Shown in pieces: positions 15,576 through 31,870 of a stretch of DNA of 39,435 nt. A program made the position numbers and the translations under genes. Below the pieces are notes generated by a model. That model was not told where the DNA came from, searched no databases, and saw only the letters and a program-made list of their open reading frames with translations. Origin of the DNA: an uncultured Collinsella sp. (GTDB lineage: Bacteria; Actinomycetota; Coriobacteriia; Coriobacteriales; Coriobacteriaceae); the NCBI GenBank assembly GCA_958451615.1, contig CAUDQR010000022.1, forward strand, positions 1 to 39,435, in the 5' to 3' direction. Every line of letters begins with the position of its first letter. The stretch's first letter is position 1.

Positions 15576-15650
15576 TCCTCGGTAGCTCAATGGTAGAGCA
15601 CGCGGCTGTTAACCGCGCTGTTGTAGGTTCGAGTCCTACCCGGGGAGCCA
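15576..15650 (+). tRNA. tRNA-Asn (GTT), copy 1
   Basis: The cloverleaf is complete: acceptor TCCTCGG pairs with CCGGGGA, the D-arm includes AGCTCAATGGTAGAGC, the anticodon loop CTGTTAA reads GTT, the T-arm contains GGTTCGAGTCC, and CCA is encoded. It is 75 bases long including CCA. It is identical to the second copy 34 bases downstream. A weak 5-bp hairpin with TTTT (15660-15680) lies between the two. Confidence 0.97.
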
Positions 15651-15684
15651 GAATTTCTCAGCCCATTTCGTAGGGCTTTTAAAT

Positions 15685-15759
15685 TCCTCGGTAGCTCAAT
15701 GGTAGAGCACGCGGCTGTTAACCGCGCTGTTGTAGGTTCGAGTCCTACCCGGGGAGCCA
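15685..15759 (+). tRNA. tRNA-Asn (GTT), copy 2
   Basis: It is base-for-base the same 75-base tRNA as copy 1, with anticodon GTT and encoded CCA. It is followed 6 bases later by a strong terminator. The identity extends a few bases into the 5' flank (ATTCCTCGG), in keeping with a recent tandem duplication or gene conversion. Confidence 0.97.
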
Positions 15760-15795: not shown

Positions 15796-15953
15796 CATGC
15801 CGCGATCGCTTGTGGCGAACGTTACCGTATCAACATTTCGTGTCGAGGATGTAATCGTGAACCCCGCCGCCTTAACATGGCGCGGTCGTTGTAAAATGTT
15901 GGAATGATTGCTCCCACGACATGGTGCCGCGAGCACCAGAAAAGGAGATTCTT

Positions 15954-16310
15954 GTGTCTGAGACCATTAACGGCAGCCTGAGCGTCTCGAACGACGTTAT
16001 TGCCGATATTGCCGGTTATGCCGCGATGACGTGCTACGGTGTCGTCGGTATGGCCGAACAGCTCCAGGGCGCCGAGAGCGTGCGCCTGCTTGCCGGCCAG
16101 CGCCTTCGCAAGGGCGTGCTTGTTTCCGCCGACGAGAACGGCCTTACGGTCGACCTTCACGTCGTGCTCGAGAACGGCGTCAATATGAAGTCCGTCTGCC
16201 ACAATCTTTCGAGCTCCGTTGCCTTCACCCTGCAGGAGATCGCACAGATCGATCCCGCCAGCCTTAAGATTGGCATCCACATCGACGCGCTCAAGAGCCG
16301 TCTGAACTAG
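15954..16310 (+). CDS. Asp23/Gls24 family protein (YloU-like)
   Basis: A 118-residue Asp23/Gls24 family protein of unclear biochemical role. Family members are often membrane-associated or envelope-stress linked. The family core is visible: GSLSVSNDVIADIAGYAAMTCYGVVGMA, then GVLVSADENGLTVDLHVVLENGVNMKSVCHNL and the closing IDPASLKIGIHIDALKS. I set the start at GTG 15954 because AAAGGAG lies 8 bases before it. An upstream ATG at 15921 has no SD. It is paired with the DAK2-domain gene downstream, exactly as yloU-yloV in Bacillus. Confidence 0.88.
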   Translation: MSETINGSLSVSNDVIADIAGYAAMTCYGVVGMAEQLQGAESVRLLAGQRLRKGVLVSADENGLTVDLHVVLENGVNMKSVCHNLSSSVAFTLQEIAQIDPASLKIGIHIDALKSRLN

Positions 16311-16337
16311 CATCCGAAAACGGAGATTCAAATACCC

Positions 16338-17999
16338 ATGATTGCAAAGACCATTCGCACCTGTTTTCCGATCGCTGCGGCTGCCGTTTCCGACAAGGCC
16401 GAGGAGATCAACAAGCTCAACGTCTTCCCCGTACCCGACGGCGACACCGGCACCAACATGTCGCTCACGCTCGCTTCGGTGACTAAGGAGCTTTCCGCCC
16501 TTCCCGCCGACGCCGACATGGAGGCCATTGCCGGAGCCATCACCCACGGCTCCCTGATGGGCGCCCGCGGCAACTCCGGCGTCATTACCTCGCAGATTCT
16601 GCGTGGTGTGGCCGAGGGCCTTGTTTCTGCCGACGAGCCCATCACGTCCGCCAATATCGCCTTCGCCTTCCGTCGTGCCGTCAAGGTTGCCTTCCAGGCT
16701 GTTCGTAAGCCCATCGAGGGCACGATTCTCACGGTTCTGCGTGATGTTTCGACCAAGGCAGACGAGTGCGAGAAGAAGAAGTTCTCGGCCGAGGACGCGC
16801 TCGATGCCATCGTCGTCGAGGCCTACCAGTCCGTCGCCCGCACGCCCGACCTGCTGCCCGTTCTGAAGGAGAACGGCGTGGTCGACTCCGGTGCCTTTGG
16901 CTTTGCCATCTTCTTGGAGAACTTTGTTGCCGCCGCGCTTGGCCGCAGCACCGTGGTCGAGGATTTCTCCGCCACGTTCGATTCCGCTGGCTCTGCCCGC
17001 GACGCGGCCCTCGATCGCGTCGAGATCGAGGCCAACGACGATTGGGAGGGTTCGGAGTTCCGCTACTGCAATGAGTTCCTCTTTAAGGCCGACGCCCCGT
17101 TTGACGAGGACGAGTGCCTTAAGTTCCTGGGCTCCATGGGCGACTGCGAGCTGCTCGTGGGTGCCTACCCCGACTACAAGATCCACGTGCACTCCAACAC
17201 CCCGAACTTGGTGCTTGAGCACATGCTGCAGCTTGGTCAGATCTACGAGGTCTTTATCCACAACATGGAGATGGAGGCCCACGACCGTACCGCTAAGATC
17301 CACGAGGACCAGGAGAAGGCCGCCGAGCCTGCGAAGGCCCTGGGCTTTGTCGCCGTTGCCGCCGGTTCCGGCGAGGCCGACATCCTCAAGTCCCTCGGCG
17401 CCGATGTGATCGTGTCGGGCGGTCAAACCATGAATCCCTCGACCGCCGACCTGCTGGGCGCCGTCGACCAGGTCAACGCGACCTCGGTCATCATCCTGCC
17501 CAACAACGGCAACATCCGCATGGCTGCCGAGGCCGCTGCTTCCGCCTGCACCGACAAGAAGGTCGCCGTCGTTCCCACCAAGACCGTCCCGCAGGCCTTC
17601 TCCGCACTGTTCGCGGTCCTGCCCGATTCTGAGCTCGAGGACGCTGTTGCCGCCATGGTCGACGCCATCAGCGAGGTCCGCGATGGCGAGGTCACCCGCG
17701 CCGTGCGCGACTCCAGCGCCTCCGACGGCTCGCCGATTCACTCCGGTGACGTCATGGGTATCATTGCCGGTTCCATCGACGTGGTCGGCTCCGATGTGAA
17801 GCAGGTCACGCTCGACTGCATCAACCGCATGCAGGAGGAAGAGGAGGGCGACTCGCTGACGATTTTGGCCGGCGAAGAGCTGTCCGATGAGGCCTTCCAG
17901 GAGATCGTCGACGCCATCGAGGAGGCTCAGCCCGATCTGGAGATCGACGCCCATCGTGGCGAGCAGCCGCTCTATCCCGTGATCTTCTCGATCGAGTAG
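16338..17999 (+). CDS. fakA: DAK2 domain protein, FakA/YloV-like fatty acid kinase
   Basis: Likely the ATP-binding subunit of fatty acid kinase, which phosphorylates exogenous fatty acids bound to FakB so that they can enter phospholipid synthesis with PlsX. The N-terminal DhaL/DAK2 domain shows NKLNVFPVPDGDTGTNM with metal-binding D34 and D36, then HGSLMGARGNSGVITSQILRG. The middle and C-terminal regions (EDAVAAMVDAISEVRDGEVTRAVRDS, then the end near 553) match the YloV layout. No fakB is in the window. plsX lies about 5 kb downstream in the same cluster, which fits the pathway. The fakA symbol is by family, not tested function. Confidence 0.87.
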   Translation: MIAKTIRTCFPIAAAAVSDKAEEINKLNVFPVPDGDTGTNMSLTLASVTKELSALPADADMEAIAGAITHGSLMGARGNSGVITSQILRGVAEGLVSADEPITSANIAFAFRRAVKVAFQAVRKPIEGTILTVLRDVSTKADECEKKKFSAEDALDAIVVEAYQSVARTPDLLPVLKENGVVDSGAFGFAIFLENFVAAALGRSTVVEDFSATFDSAGSARDAALDRVEIEANDDWEGSEFRYCNEFLFKADAPFDEDECLKFLGSMGDCELLVGAYPDYKIHVHSNTPNLVLEHMLQLGQIYEVFIHNMEMEAHDRTAKIHEDQEKAAEPAKALGFVAVAAGSGEADILKSLGADVIVSGGQTMNPSTADLLGAVDQVNATSVIILPNNGNIRMAAEAAASACTDKKVAVVPTKTVPQAFSALFAVLPDSELEDAVAAMVDAISEVRDGEVTRAVRDSSASDGSPIHSGDVMGIIAGSIDVVGSDVKQVTLDCINRMQEEEEGDSLTILAGEELSDEAFQEIVDAIEEAQPDLEIDAHRGEQPLYPVIFSIE

Positions 18000-18008
18000 G
18001 CTCTGCCT

Positions 18009-20186
18009 ATGTCCGAGCTGTGCTCCGTGCCGCGCGTCTCGGAGCGTTTTGCCCAGAGCAATGCGCTCGATGAGGATATCGCGCGACTCAAATATGTTTC
18101 GGGTAAACGTGAGGAGGCCCTTCGCCGTCTGGGAATTCGGACGGTGGGGGACCTCCTTCTCCATATTCCTCATCGCTACCTGGACTTCACTCGCTCGTGG
18201 TCCATCGAGATGGCGCCCATCGGTACCGTGTGTACCATCATCGCCACGGTCGATCGTATTGTCCAAAAGCAGCCCCGTCCGCGTATGCAGGTGACTGAGG
18301 TCTCGCTCGTGGACGAGACGGGCGTGCTGCAGGTTGCCTTTTTCCGTCAGCCTTGGATTGCCCAACAGCTTAAGCAGGGCGACCGCCTGGCCGTGATGGG
18401 CAAGGTCGAGTTTGCCTACGGTTTTAAGCAGATGGCCTCGCCCCACTTTGAAAAGCTCGAGGACGGGCGCGCCGCCGGCACCATTTTGCCGGTTCACTAC
18501 GTAAGTGACGGCGTGAGTCAGGCATGGATGCGCCGTATCGTGAGCGGTGCGCTCGAAGTGGCTGCTAATCCGTTCGATCCCATTCCCGCGCCGCTGCGCG
18601 CAAAGCGGAAACTCATGAGCAATGCCCGTGCGCTGCGCTCGATCCACTTTCCCTCGAGCATGGCCGAGCGCGACATCGCACGCCGGCGTCTTGCGTACGA
18701 GGAGTGTCTCTGCTTGCAGCTCGCACTGCGTCTGCGCAACGATGGCGGTATGGTCGACGTGGTGCCTTATGCGCATGCCGCGGGCGGGCACCTGGCGGCG
18801 CTCAAGGAGGCCCTGCCGTTTTCGCTGAGCGACGAGCAGGAGGCCGCGTTCCAAGACATCCTGCACGACATGTGCGATGGCGGGCGCGTGATGAACCGCC
18901 TACTGCTGGGCGACGTCGGTACCGGCAAGACGGCCGTCGCCGCTTGCGCGCTGGCCGTCGCGGCCGATTCGGGTACTCAGTCCTGCGTTATGGCGCCTAC
19001 GGGCGTGCTGGCGCGCCAATATGCCGATAAGACCGGCCCCTTGCTCTCGCAGGCTGGCATGTCCTGGGCGCTCCTGACGGGTGCCACGCCGGCGGCCGAG
19101 CGCGAGCAGATCCATGCGCAGCTGGAATCGGGCGAGCTCGACGTGCTCATTGGTACCCATGCGGTCCTTTCGGATGACGTGGCGTTTAAGCATCTGTCGC
19201 TTGTCGTCATCGACGAGCAGCACCGCTTTGGTGTGGGCCAGCGCAATGCCCTGCGTGCCAAGGGCCCGGGTGCCGACCTGCTCGTTATGACGGCGACGCC
19301 GATTCCGCGTACGTTGGCGCTTTCGGTCTACGGCGACCTGGACACGAGCATCATCCGCCATCGACCTGTTCCGGGGGCGGGCGTTACGACGCGCGTCCTC
19401 ACCGAGTCGAGTCGCGACCTGGCCTATGGCGCCATTCGTGAGGCGCACGAAAAGGGGCAGCAAGCCTACGTGATCTGTCCGCTCGTGGAGCCGAGCGATT
19501 CGGCCGATGAGCTCGAAGACGTGCCCGGCATCGCTCGCGACGACGAAGGCCGCGTGTCCGTGCCTGTGCCGTTGCACGACACGGCGACCGAGCTCGACCG
19601 ACTGCGCCTGGCATTGCCGGGGCTTACCATCGAGCGTCTTCATGGCCGCATGCCGGCGGGGGAGAAGGACCGCGTGATCGATGCCTTTAAGCGCGGCGAG
19701 ATCGATGTGCTCGTCTCGACCACGGTGGTCGAGGTGGGCGTCGACGTGCCCAACGCCACCGTTATGGTCATCGAGAACGGCGAGCGCTTTGGTTTGGCAG
19801 CCTTGCACCAGCTGCGTGGGCGCGTAGGCCGCGGCAGCGTGTCGGGTACGTGCCTGGTCATGACTCACTCCAAGGGCAACGGCGGCGCGTCGGCGGCACA
19901 GGAACGCCTCCAGTCGCTCGAGAAGACCTCGGACGGCTTTACGCTCGCCCAGATGGACCTGCGCTTGCGCCACGAGGGTGAAATCCTGGGTTACCGTCAG
20001 CATGGCGGCGTGACCTTGCACTTTGTTGACCTCGATGCCGACGAGGAATTGATCGGGTGGGCCCATTTGGACGCGGTCGAGCTCTTGCGGTATGCTTGCA
20101 ACCTTGACTCCGTGGCGACGCGCCCCTTGCGCGATGCGGTCGCCATGCGGTATCGACACATCTTTAAGGAGGTCAGCGGAGGATGA
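18009..20186 (+). CDS. recG: ATP-dependent DNA helicase RecG
   Basis: Remodels stalled forks and Holliday junctions. The 725 residues have an N-terminal wedge/OB domain (GIRTVGDLLLHIPHRYLDFTRS, then QVTEVSLVDETGVLQVAFFRQPW). The helicase core follows: Walker A GDVGTGKT (301-308), DEQH box (402-405, DEQHRFGVGQRNALR), TATPIPRTLALSVYGDLD, and motifs V-VI around STTVVEVGVDVPNATVMVIENGERFGLAALHQLRGRVGRG. It starts 9 bases after fakA and overlaps rsmD by ATGA. Confidence 0.96.
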   Translation: MSELCSVPRVSERFAQSNALDEDIARLKYVSGKREEALRRLGIRTVGDLLLHIPHRYLDFTRSWSIEMAPIGTVCTIIATVDRIVQKQPRPRMQVTEVSLVDETGVLQVAFFRQPWIAQQLKQGDRLAVMGKVEFAYGFKQMASPHFEKLEDGRAAGTILPVHYVSDGVSQAWMRRIVSGALEVAANPFDPIPAPLRAKRKLMSNARALRSIHFPSSMAERDIARRRLAYEECLCLQLALRLRNDGGMVDVVPYAHAAGGHLAALKEALPFSLSDEQEAAFQDILHDMCDGGRVMNRLLLGDVGTGKTAVAACALAVAADSGTQSCVMAPTGVLARQYADKTGPLLSQAGMSWALLTGATPAAEREQIHAQLESGELDVLIGTHAVLSDDVAFKHLSLVVIDEQHRFGVGQRNALRAKGPGADLLVMTATPIPRTLALSVYGDLDTSIIRHRPVPGAGVTTRVLTESSRDLAYGAIREAHEKGQQAYVICPLVEPSDSADELEDVPGIARDDEGRVSVPVPLHDTATELDRLRLALPGLTIERLHGRMPAGEKDRVIDAFKRGEIDVLVSTTVVEVGVDVPNATVMVIENGERFGLAALHQLRGRVGRGSVSGTCLVMTHSKGNGGASAAQERLQSLEKTSDGFTLAQMDLRLRHEGEILGYRQHGGVTLHFVDLDADEELIGWAHLDAVELLRYACNLDSVATRPLRDAVAMRYRHIFKEVSGG

Positions 20187-30939: not shown

Positions 30940-31704
30940 TTAGTGGCAGCCGCAGCCCTCGTGGCCCTCGTGCTCGTGATGGCCGTGGCAGCCGCAGGAA
31001 TCGCCATGCTCGTGAGTGTGGTCGTGGCCGTGGCCATGGCAGTCGCAGGTGGCCTCGCCGGTCTGCGCGAGCGTGCCGGCAATGAGGGCCTCGACGCAAG
31101 CGTCGCAGCTGCCCTGGGCACCTGCGTATACTGTGATGCCGGCTTGGGCAAGCGCGTTGATAGCGCCACCGCCGATGCCGCCGCAGATGAGCGTGTCCAC
31201 GCCGCCGTTGGCGAGCAGGCCCGCAAGGGCACCGTGGCCGGTGCCGCCGGTGCCCACGACCTGCTCGTTGAGTACCTTGCCGTCCTGAATGTCGTAGATC
31301 TTGAACTGCTCGCTGCGGCCAAAGTGCATAAAGATGTTGCCGTTGTCGTACGTGGTTGCCACCCTCATGGTATCGATCTCCTTTGCTGGCCATACGGCCG
31401 TTGCCGTGGTAATGGGGGAGTACGCAATATTGCCGCCTTCGATGATGAGCGCCCGACCATTGACCAACGCGTTTGCCACCTTGCGATGCGCGCGGCTGCA
31501 AATAGCCGCCACCGTGGCGCGCGCGATACCCATCTGCTGTGCGACTGCCTCTTGGTTAAGGCCTTCCAGGTCGCACAGGCGCAGCGCCTCGAGTTCGTCG
31601 ACCGTCATGTCGATGGCGTCTCCGCTGGCTAGGCCGTCAGGGGTAAAGCCGCGGTATTCGGGGATGATCCCGACGCGGCGCAGTTTTTCGCGTCTTCCTG
31701 CCAT
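30940..31704 (-). CDS. DUF134 - NifX/NifB-type (dinitrogenase iron-molybdenum cofactor) fusion with a His/Cys-rich tail
   Basis: A 254-residue fusion. Residues 1-95 form a DUF134 domain: RRVGIIPEYRGFTPDG, then DELEALRLCDLEGLNQEAVAQQMGIARATV, which has a sigma-region-4-like helix-turn-helix. Residues about 110-215 form a NifX/NafY/MTH1175-like domain (MHFGRSEQFKIYDI; GGIGGGAINALAQAGITVYAG). The last 35 residues contain 12 His and 6 Cys, a strong metal-binding tail. No nitrogenase genes are nearby, so nitrogen fixation is not implied. A metal-sensing or metallocluster-handling regulator is more likely. The start is supported by AAGGAGA. Two palindromes flank its promoter. Confidence 0.85.
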   Translation of the reverse strand: MAGRREKLRRVGIIPEYRGFTPDGLASGDAIDMTVDELEALRLCDLEGLNQEAVAQQMGIARATVAAICSRAHRKVANALVNGRALIIEGGNIAYSPITTATAVWPAKEIDTMRVATTYDNGNIFMHFGRSEQFKIYDIQDGKVLNEQVVGTGGTGHGALAGLLANGGVDTLICGGIGGGAINALAQAGITVYAGAQGSCDACVEALIAGTLAQTGEATCDCHGHGHDHTHEHGDSCGCHGHHEHEGHEGCGCH

Positions 31705-31718
31705 GTGCTCTCCTTATC

Positions 31719-31730
31719 TGACATATGTCA
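31719..31730. promoter_or_regulatory. Palindromic operator candidate 1
   Basis: TGACATATGTCA is a perfect 12-bp palindrome centred on CATATG. It overlaps the predicted transcription start of the DUF134-NifX gene, which is a position for repression. It shares the CATATG core with the longer site at 31766-31789. Confidence 0.65.
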
Positions 31731-31735
31731 ACAAT

Positions 31736-31763
31736 AGAATAGCGAACGCGCAGATTTATGCAA
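31736..31763 (-). promoter_or_regulatory. Promoter of the DUF134-NifX fusion gene
   Basis: Read on the minus strand: -35 TTGCAT (31758-31763), 16-base spacer, -10 TATTCT (31736-31741). The SD AAGGAGA and ATG follow. Both CATATG palindromes abut this promoter, one at the start site and one just upstream of the -35 box. Confidence 0.7.
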
Positions 31764-31765
31764 TG

Positions 31766-31789
31766 AATTTCTGGCATATGACAGAAATT
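31766..31789. promoter_or_regulatory. Palindromic operator candidate 2
   Basis: A 24-bp near-perfect palindrome: arms AATTTCTG (31766-31773) and CAGAAATT (31782-31789) around G-CATATG-A. Only one pair of positions breaks the symmetry. It lies 2 bases upstream of the -35 box of the DUF134-NifX promoter and about 80 bases upstream of thyA, so it could affect either gene. Confidence 0.7.
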
Positions 31790-31870
31790 GTGGGCTTATG
31801 TTTGGGCTGTGGGGCCGCATGTGCCTGGGCTACAATGAATCTCGCTTATAGGCAACTGACAGGAGGGTCA

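What the first reader, a model, noticed from the sequence alone, without database searches (positions are those of the whole stretch)
30940..31704. DUF134 HTH fused to a NifX-like domain and a 12-His/6-Cys tail
A DNA-binding-like domain, a cofactor-binding domain and a metal-chelating tail lie in one protein, with no nitrogenase genes nearby. The layout suggests a one-component metal or metallocluster sensor that regulates its own gene, or a storage/chaperone protein with autoregulation. The domain identities come from family patterns; the regulatory role is inference.
Basis: partly seen in the sequence, partly recalled or inferred. Interest (0 to 1): 0.72.

Follow-up and report, generated by a model that had tools for sequence, protein, structure and literature searches.

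The report
Self-repressing metal-protein gene with two products
A gut Collinsella gene joins a DNA-binding-type domain to a metal-cluster-binding-type domain, carries conserved palindromes in its own promoter that look like repressor sites, and has a conserved start signal inside it that predicts a second, shorter protein.

Summary
ORF 30940-31704(-) is DUF134 (E 3e-22), then Nitro_FeMo-Co/NifX (E 5e-21), then a predicted-disordered tail with 12 His and 6 Cys. The fusion itself is not rare: many Clostridia have it. In the window's order it was found only in its own genus (17 of 35 genomes; 0 of 23 others).

Two further findings. (1) Operator: the promoter holds a palindrome, GACATATGTC, that recurs (at most 2 mismatches) upstream of 85 of 87 fused genes from Actinomycetota, Bacillota, Spirochaetota and a Synergistes MAG; shuffles average 4.3. 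Copies overlap the -35 box or follow the -10, as for an autorepressor. Of 35 perfect sites in 36 genomes, 33 lie in the gene's own promoter. (2) Internal start: a Shine-Dalgarno sequence plus ATG/GTG lies at the start of the NifX domain (31366-31383). SD matches of 5 nt or more occur in 77 of 85 genes, where synonymous recoding predicts 30, and in 7 of 7 fused genes chosen by DUF134 alone. It predicts a second product, NifX plus tail.

Best reading: one gene encodes an autorepressor and a free metallocluster carrier. DNA binding, the second product, the metal and the sensing are inferred, not shown.

The parts
30940..31704 (-). DUF134-NifX-tail fusion gene, 254 aa (full-length product)
   Evidence: ORF, Pfam
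31426..31698 (-). DUF134 domain, residues 3-93, sigma-70-region-4-like HTH
31378..31383 (-). internal Shine-Dalgarno AAGGAG
31366..31368 (-). internal ATG (Met113), predicted start of the second product
30940..31368 (-). predicted short product: NifX-like domain plus tail, 142 aa (inference)
31081..31344 (-). Nitro_FeMo-Co (NifX-like) domain, residues 121-208
30943..31047 (-). His/Cys tail, residues 220-254, predicted disordered from about 224
31720..31729 (-). operator-like O2 core GACATATGTC (perfect palindrome), just after the -10-like box
31773..31782 (-). operator-like O1 core GTCATATGCC (2 mismatches), just upstream of the -35-like box
31736..31741 (-). -10-like TATTCT
   Evidence: read by eye; context; inference
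31758..31763 (-). -35-like TTGCAT (16-nt spacer)
   Evidence: read by eye; inference
31710..31715 (-). Shine-Dalgarno AAGGAG of the full-length start

Best explanation
The gene is an autoregulated, two-product metallocluster-protein gene. Full-length protein (DUF134 + NifX-like + His/Cys tail) binds the GACATATGTC palindromes in its own promoter through the sigma-4-like DUF134 HTH and blocks RNA polymerase (sites shown; binding and repression inferred). Ribosomes also start at the internal AAGGAG...ATG and make the NifX-like + tail protein alone (signal shown by conservation; product inferred), which acts as a soluble carrier or buffer of a metal or metal-sulfur cluster (inferred). Loading of the shared NifX/tail part by metal or cluster changes the repressor's DNA affinity, so the supply of carrier follows demand (inferred; sign unknown).
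For: Operator: at most 2 mismatches to GACATATGTC within 110 nt upstream in 85 of 87 genes (window plus 86 loci), against shuffle mean 4.3 (max 10 in 200 shuffles), 4 of 86 in-gene and 7 of 83 downstream controls; 49 of 87 perfect; 66 of 68 after removing similar upstreams. It is the commonest perfect 10-bp palindrome there; the next occurs in 2 upstreams. Commonest positions: core starting 7 nt after a -10-like start (35 site/box pairs) or 21 nt before it, on the -35 (32 pairs); in 44 of 46 sites classed by position as -35-overlapping the operator's left half is TTGACA. In 18 of 18 same-genus copies (window plus 17) both sites are recognisable, one letter changed in O1 of L008 and O2 of L013, even where the flanking DNA differs. 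Specificity: 33 of 35 perfect TGACATATGTCA sites in 36 genomes lie in an own promoter (31 by fetched sequence, 2 by coordinates). Internal start: ATG (100) or GTG (2) in the 102 of 104 genes where the motif was found, SD >= 5 in 91% against 9% before all codons; 77 of 85 against 29.7 expected from synonymous recoding, other internal ATGs 30 of 334; Met in 110 and Val in 9 of the 119 (of 120) proteins that matched; 7 of 7 fused genes picked by the DUF134 HMM. On an E. coli plasmid the two domains are separate genes overlapping by 4 nt behind similar palindromes. Carrier role: three operator-bearing stand-alone DUF134 genes sit beside a NifX-like frame (L041) or frames with the GKGGVGK motif of Mrp/NBP35-type ATPases (L042, L046, read by eye); in Selenomonas the one further operator lies before an Mrp/NBP35 gene. 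A related domain in MrpORP binds Fe-S clusters (PMC6345978, passages).
Against: No binding, expression, proteomic or metal data were available. The operator is tied to DUF134 by position only; most stand-alone DUF134 genes lack it (8 of 28 loci in the class of G361 have it; 3 of 23 parsed loci of the window's phylum, 7 more not parsed), and 3 of the 4 stand-alone loci with an Mrp-type motif downstream (L211, L221, L223; not L218) lack it. Two of 87 genes (L066, L126) have no site by this rule; in the DUF134-selected set L241 has 4 mismatches and L240 a different palindrome. One of the two patterns of the scan required Met at the internal start, so Met invariance in that set is partly built in. 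SD-like sequence could serve pausing. Two genes (L125, L131) have the internal ATG three codons earlier. The loci are related, so counts overstate independence. The window copy sits alone, between ffh- and thyA-type genes, and its genus has no CHR transporter (0 of 35). One of the 120 listed homologues has no His in its last 45 residues.
Confidence: 0.6

Rival explanations
1. Autoregulator only: the operator works as described, but the internal SD/ATG is a leftover of an old gene fusion and is not used.
For: The split E. coli plasmid arrangement shows how a fusion could leave a start site behind.
Against: The site is kept across proteins 45-55% identical to the window's, above synonymous expectation, with the SD encoded by different residues and in all three frames (66, 14 and 4 genes).
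Confidence: 0.2
2. Storage or detoxification protein first: the tail and NifX domain buffer a metal or an oxyanion product and DUF134 merely limits its amount by metal-independent negative feedback. This overlaps with the other readings on the operator and the short product.
For: His/Cys-rich ends (median 8 His and 4 Cys, minimum 4 and 3, in the last 45 residues of 86 genes); CHR-family transporter near 24 of 86 loci, 9 divergent across an 81-130 nt spacer and 11 within 150 nt downstream.
Against: Mrp/NBP35 and C_GCAxxG_C_C neighbours point to redox or Fe-S chemistry; the tail is variable apart from its start (C220 and H223 invariant in 60 of 60).
Confidence: 0.25
3. The CATATG palindromes bind another, more general regulator and DUF134 does something else.
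For: No direct binding data; most stand-alone DUF134 genes lack the site.
Against: Perfect sites are nearly confined to this gene's promoter in 36 genomes and absent from 9 of 9 same-genus genomes searched that lack the gene.
Confidence: 0.1
4. Nitrogenase cofactor chaperone, as the NifX name suggests.
For: Nitro_FeMo-Co domain.
Against: No PF00148 match in 35 of 35 same-genus genomes; far below the NifX equivalog cut-off, 15.6 of 112 bits.
Confidence: 0.02

Closest known systems
MrpORP / Mrp-NBP35 iron-sulfur carriers (Desulfovibrio; PMC6345978, passages seen)
   Same: A NifX/ORP-type (Di-Nase) domain fused to another domain; the abstract passage reports Fe-S binding by both domains; the ORP part is a sub-cut-off NCBIfam hit.
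   Different: The partner there is a P-loop NTPase, here DUF134; the orp operons there are sigma-54 controlled. No His/Cys tail was compared.
NifX / NafY / ORP small proteins (PDB 9ian, 1p90, 2wfb, 2yx6)
   Different: Single-domain chains of 112-141 residues in that table; no nitrogenase match in this genus.
Stand-alone DUF134 (UPF0251, name recalled) proteins
   Same: Same domain; a minority share the operator.
   Different: Not fused; function unknown. A whole-word search for DUF134 found 2 papers, with the term in neither title nor abstract (listing only).
Sigma-70 region 4
   Different: Below the Pfam cut-off (22.8 against 24.1 bits); no other sigma region found; the site is a palindrome.
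Bacterial genes with an internal in-frame start giving a short isoform (e.g. CheA-short, IF2; recalled, no call)
   Same: SD plus start codon inside the reading frame.
   Different: Here the site separates a DNA-binding-type domain from a cofactor-binding-type domain in a gene with its own operator.

Membership tests
DUF134 (PF02001) | Pfam score over gathering cut-off | tested here: met
   79.4 vs 27 bits
Nitro_FeMo-Co (PF02579) | Pfam score over gathering cut-off | tested here: met
   75.1 vs 26.3 bits
NifX equivalog (TIGR02663) | NCBIfam score over cut-off | tested here: not met
   15.6 vs 112 bits
MrpORP (NF041136) | NCBIfam score over cut-off; P-loop NTPase domain | tested here: not met
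   72.4 vs 450 bits, only the ORP part aligned; no NTPase family among the 15 Pfam hits
Sigma-70 factor | Region 4 over cut-off | tested here: not met
   22.8 vs 24.1 bits
One-component autoregulator | DNA-binding-type domain plus conserved palindrome in its own promoter | tested here: met
One-component autoregulator | Protein shown to bind that site | not testable with these tools
   needs purified protein
One-component metal/cluster sensor | Ligand-dependent DNA binding | not testable with these tools
   needs protein and metals
Internal-start two-product gene | Conserved SD and start codon beyond coding constraint | tested here: met
Internal-start two-product gene | Short protein detected | not testable with these tools
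   no proteomics or ribosome profiling at hand

The most novel reading that the evidence does not exclude
A widespread anaerobe gene family in which one reading frame makes both a sigma-4-like repressor and, from a conserved internal start, a free metallocluster carrier that shares its sensing domain. In many promoters the repressor's operator is built on the -35 hexamer (TTGACA-TA-TGTC), so it competes with sigma factor for the same letters, and the ratio of long to short product and its cluster load sets expression. Where a CHR-family transporter is adjacent, the sensed species is a group-6 oxyanion product (Mo, W or Cr).
Probability: 0.35. Interest if true: 0.78.

Novelty: new variant of a known kind. 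Interest (0 to 1): 0.62.

Why it matters
DUF134 is a domain of unknown function present in bacteria and archaea (control genomes). These data give part of the family a concrete candidate DNA site, a promoter architecture and a testable role as repressor of metallocluster-carrier genes. The conserved internal start suggests how a regulator and its cargo protein can be made from one gene, and NifX-like proteins in non-nitrogen-fixing gut anaerobes gain a regulatory context.

Tried and rejected
Nitrogenase link: rejected for the genus. A wider regulon: in 1.2 Mb of fetched loci (86 loci, forward-strand scan with near-palindromic patterns) one further site, before Mrp/NBP35 in Selenomonas. In 36 genomes (those of 36 of the 80 genome-contig loci, chosen by me), 2 of 35 perfect sites are not in an own promoter: one (R. 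albus 8, L157) lies inside a 440-aa open frame, one (G348:C44:9646) was not examined. Sites of the TGACATAAGTCA type without a known own gene were read for 6 loci (L146, L156, L158, L160, L161, L162): L162 is the promoter of a further fused gene in that genome, L160 precedes a 156-aa open frame, the others gave no pattern; other such sites were not fetched. Helical phasing of the two operators: spacings 28, 32-34, 41, 53; 28 does not fit whole turns, so not claimed.

Mutual exclusion in the genus: 17 of 35 genomes have the fusion, 11 have instead a stand-alone NifX-family gene of another type without a His/Cys tail, 7 have neither, none has both (hypergeometric 7.6e-5). It is confounded by relatedness, so it is not used as evidence. 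One same-order genome (G053) has a NifX-like frame resembling the fused type cut by its contig end (L207), so a fusion there cannot be excluded although DUF134 was not found.

CHR transporter as universal partner: no match in the window's genus (0 of 35), so it cannot explain the window copy. Papers: the word-start search for DUF134 gave 22 papers; in the three opened, the hits shown were DUF1349 or DUF1345 (passages). UPF0251 gave one paper with one mutation-table line (passage). COG1342 gave one listing (not read). The operator string gave none. Further word searches listed nothing on this fusion that I recognised beyond MrpORP (passages). PMC11633334: one table passage naming a C. difficile NifB/NifX gene, not used.

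Weak steps: gene starts were chosen by a heuristic. One search failed on locus orientation and was redone. One search lost the centre gene in 24 of 86 loci and was superseded. The synonymous control used small per-gene codon counts; 2 of 87 genes (L125, L131) did not fit the motif and were left out of it, as they were (2 of 104). In one search two of seven loci (L239, L240) were not caught by the pattern and were read. mRNA folding at the internal start (-11.7 kcal/mol, gene mean -17.9, sd 6.4) is only mildly open.

Full report

Where it occurs. A protein search counted 6250 relatives at E <= 1e-3; the 120 listed all carry DUF134 plus Nitro_FeMo-Co by precomputed Pfam, and one bears the name Collinsella aerofaciens. 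Named Collinsella contigs encode it at 94% identity. DUF134 is over cut-off in 17 of 35 same-genus genomes and 0 of 23 same-order others. A capped genome-contig scan kept 80 loci: three Collinsella, most of the rest titled as Clostridia or Bacillota, with Treponema, Spirochaetales, Selenomonadales and Synergistes among them. Plasmid records added Subdoligranulum, Selenomonas, Pusillibacter, Roseburia and Treponema. Among 196 genomes from the class of a Butyrivibrio genome (G361) 81 have DUF134 over cut-off, but most open frames are short, i.e. stand-alone. So the fusion is an established architecture, not a one-off. PF00148 has no match in 35 of 35 same-genus genomes; PF10609 (Mrp type) matches in 35 of 35.

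The operator. Aligning the upstream DNA of the window gene and 17 same-genus copies shows two conserved palindromes in otherwise variable DNA, including one copy (L002) with a different upstream sequence; O1 of L008 and O2 of L013 have one letter changed. The same core, GACATATGTC, stands before fused genes of distant lineages. On 87 upstream regions (window plus 86 loci; L052 left out because L051 has the same gene) 49 hold it perfectly, 77 with at most 1 mismatch and 85 with at most 2; 200 shuffles average 0.01, 0.34 and 4.3. In-gene and downstream controls give 4 of 86 and 7 of 83 at 2 mismatches. After removing similar upstream regions 66 of 68 remain. A stricter pattern gave 62 of 86 with 27 double, against 5 of 86 downstream (83 of them with 100 nt or more), 1 of 86 in-gene and a shuffle mean of 1.4. 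In sites classed by position as overlapping the -35 the left half is TTGACA in 44 of 46; in sites after the -10 it is in 21 of 58. The window has O2 (31720-31729, perfect) just after a TATTCT -10-like box and O1 (31773-31782, 2 mismatches) just upstream of a TTGCAT -35-like box. This is the geometry of a repressor. That DUF134 is the binder is inference from its HTH, its co-occurrence with the site and the scarcity of sites elsewhere.

Specificity. In 36 whole genomes of carriers (of 36 of the 80 genome-contig loci), 35 perfect TGACATATGTCA sites were found in 24 genomes, 33 of them in an own promoter: 31 shown by fetched sequence, 2 (G368) by coordinates matching L107. Twelve of the 36 genomes have no perfect site. 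Among 21 same-genus genomes searched, 10 of 12 carriers have one perfect site, each beside the gene, the other 2 carry one-letter variants, and 9 of 9 non-carriers have none. One perfect site lies in a same-order genome without DUF134 over cut-off (G037). The one extra operator in 1.2 Mb of fetched loci precedes an Mrp/NBP35 gene directly upstream of the Selenomonas fusion. In the window's genus the regulon is therefore probably the gene itself; the divergent thyA, whose apparent start is 31871 (read), shares the spacer and could be affected (inference).

Stand-alone relatives. Three of 23 parsed DUF134 loci of the window's phylum (30 fetched, 7 not parsed) carry the site (L041, L042, L046); beside them lie a NifX-like frame (L041) or frames with a GKGGVGK motif as in Mrp/NBP35 proteins (L042, L046), read by eye. 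In the class of G361 8 of 28 stand-alone loci and 2 of 2 fused ones have it at 2 mismatches; of 4 stand-alone loci with that motif downstream only L218 has the site. The operator thus belongs to part of the DUF134 family, and the Mrp link is not tied to it in every case.

The internal start. In the window AAGGAG (31378-31383) precedes ATG 31366-31368 by 9 nt, and this ATG opens the NifX-like domain. In 102 of 104 genes where the domain start was found the codon is ATG (100) or GTG (2), and an SD match of 5 nt or more is present in 91%, against 9% before all codons, 6% nearby and 80% at the chosen gene starts. The two left out (L125, L131) have ATG three codons earlier behind GGAG. Resampling synonymous codons for the same peptide predicts 29.7 of 85 genes with such an SD; 77 have it; among 334 other internal ATGs 30 do. 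The SD is carried by different residues and frames (66, 14 and 4 genes). Among 119 matching proteins of the 120 listed homologues the residue is Met in 110 and Val in 9 (their DNA was not read); the two Val cases read in DNA elsewhere, L012 and L097, are GTG. Because one of two scan patterns contained this Met, I tested genes chosen only by the DUF134 HMM: the seven over-cut-off frames of 240 aa or more other than G361's own (L212, L214, L238-L242) are all fused and all 7 have ATG with AAGGA or AAGGAG, including L240, whose NifX half is of a different type. On an E. coli plasmid the two domains are separate genes overlapping by 4 nt, with palindromes of the same kind upstream. I conclude that an internal start is under selection; that it yields a protein remains to be shown.

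Neighbours. In the fetched loci the commonest recurring partner is a CHR-family (chromate transporter, PF02417) gene, in 24 of 86 loci, 9 divergent and 11 within 150 nt downstream; MBL-fold proteins occur in 13 and C_GCAxxG_C_C redox proteins in 11. Relatedness of the loci inflates these counts. The window's genus has no CHR match (0 of 35), so the metal question is open.

Mechanism and verdict. Best-supported: an autorepressor and a metallocluster carrier from one gene, the carrier also made alone from the internal start. Shown: domains, palindromes, internal start signal and their conservation. Inferred: that DUF134 binds the palindrome, repression, the short product, cluster binding, ligand control. 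The nearest characterised system seen here is MrpORP, where a related domain binds Fe-S clusters (PMC6345978, passages only). In the searches made, no paper was seen that links DUF134 to an operator or an internal start (a library of open-licence papers only, and most hits were seen as listings).

Noticed in passing
L058:3962-4845 (E. coli plasmid pKTa005_1): DUF134 and a NifX-like gene with His/Cys-rich end as two overlapping genes behind TTGGCATATGCCA-type palindromes; 168 plasmid records match the query, mostly Enterobacteriaceae, and in most of the 40 listed only the DUF134 part matches.
   Followed up: partly
same-genus genomes G006, G009, G014, G016, G017, G018, G020, G022, G030, G032, G035 (L195-L205): Genomes lacking the fusion carry instead one stand-alone NifX-family gene of another type without a His/Cys tail; no genome of the 35 has both.
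   Followed up: partly
L064, L073, L074, L077, L080, L083, L084, L086, L101: CHR (chromate transporter) genes start 81-130 nt away, divergent across the DUF134-NifX operators.
   Followed up: partly
L240: A divergent DUF134-NifX fusion with a different perfect palindrome (TGTGCATATGCACA) before the gene and the same internal AAAGGAG..ATG, perhaps a separate fusion event.
   Followed up: no
L162 (genome of L074): A second DUF134-NifX fused gene in a genome that already has one, with TGACATAAGTCA-type sites in its promoter.
   Followed up: no
L207 (G053): A NifX-like frame resembling the fused type, with a His/Cys-rich stretch, cut by the contig end in another family of the order.
   Followed up: no
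window 31705-31870: The divergent thyA (start about 31871) shares the spacer with the operators and might be co-regulated.
   Followed up: no
window 15576-15759: Two tandem tRNA-Asn (GTT) genes.
   Followed up: no
window 15822-18866: A 1014-aa minus-strand open frame without Pfam match at E 1e-5, opposite plus-strand frames; probably not coding as called.
   Followed up: no
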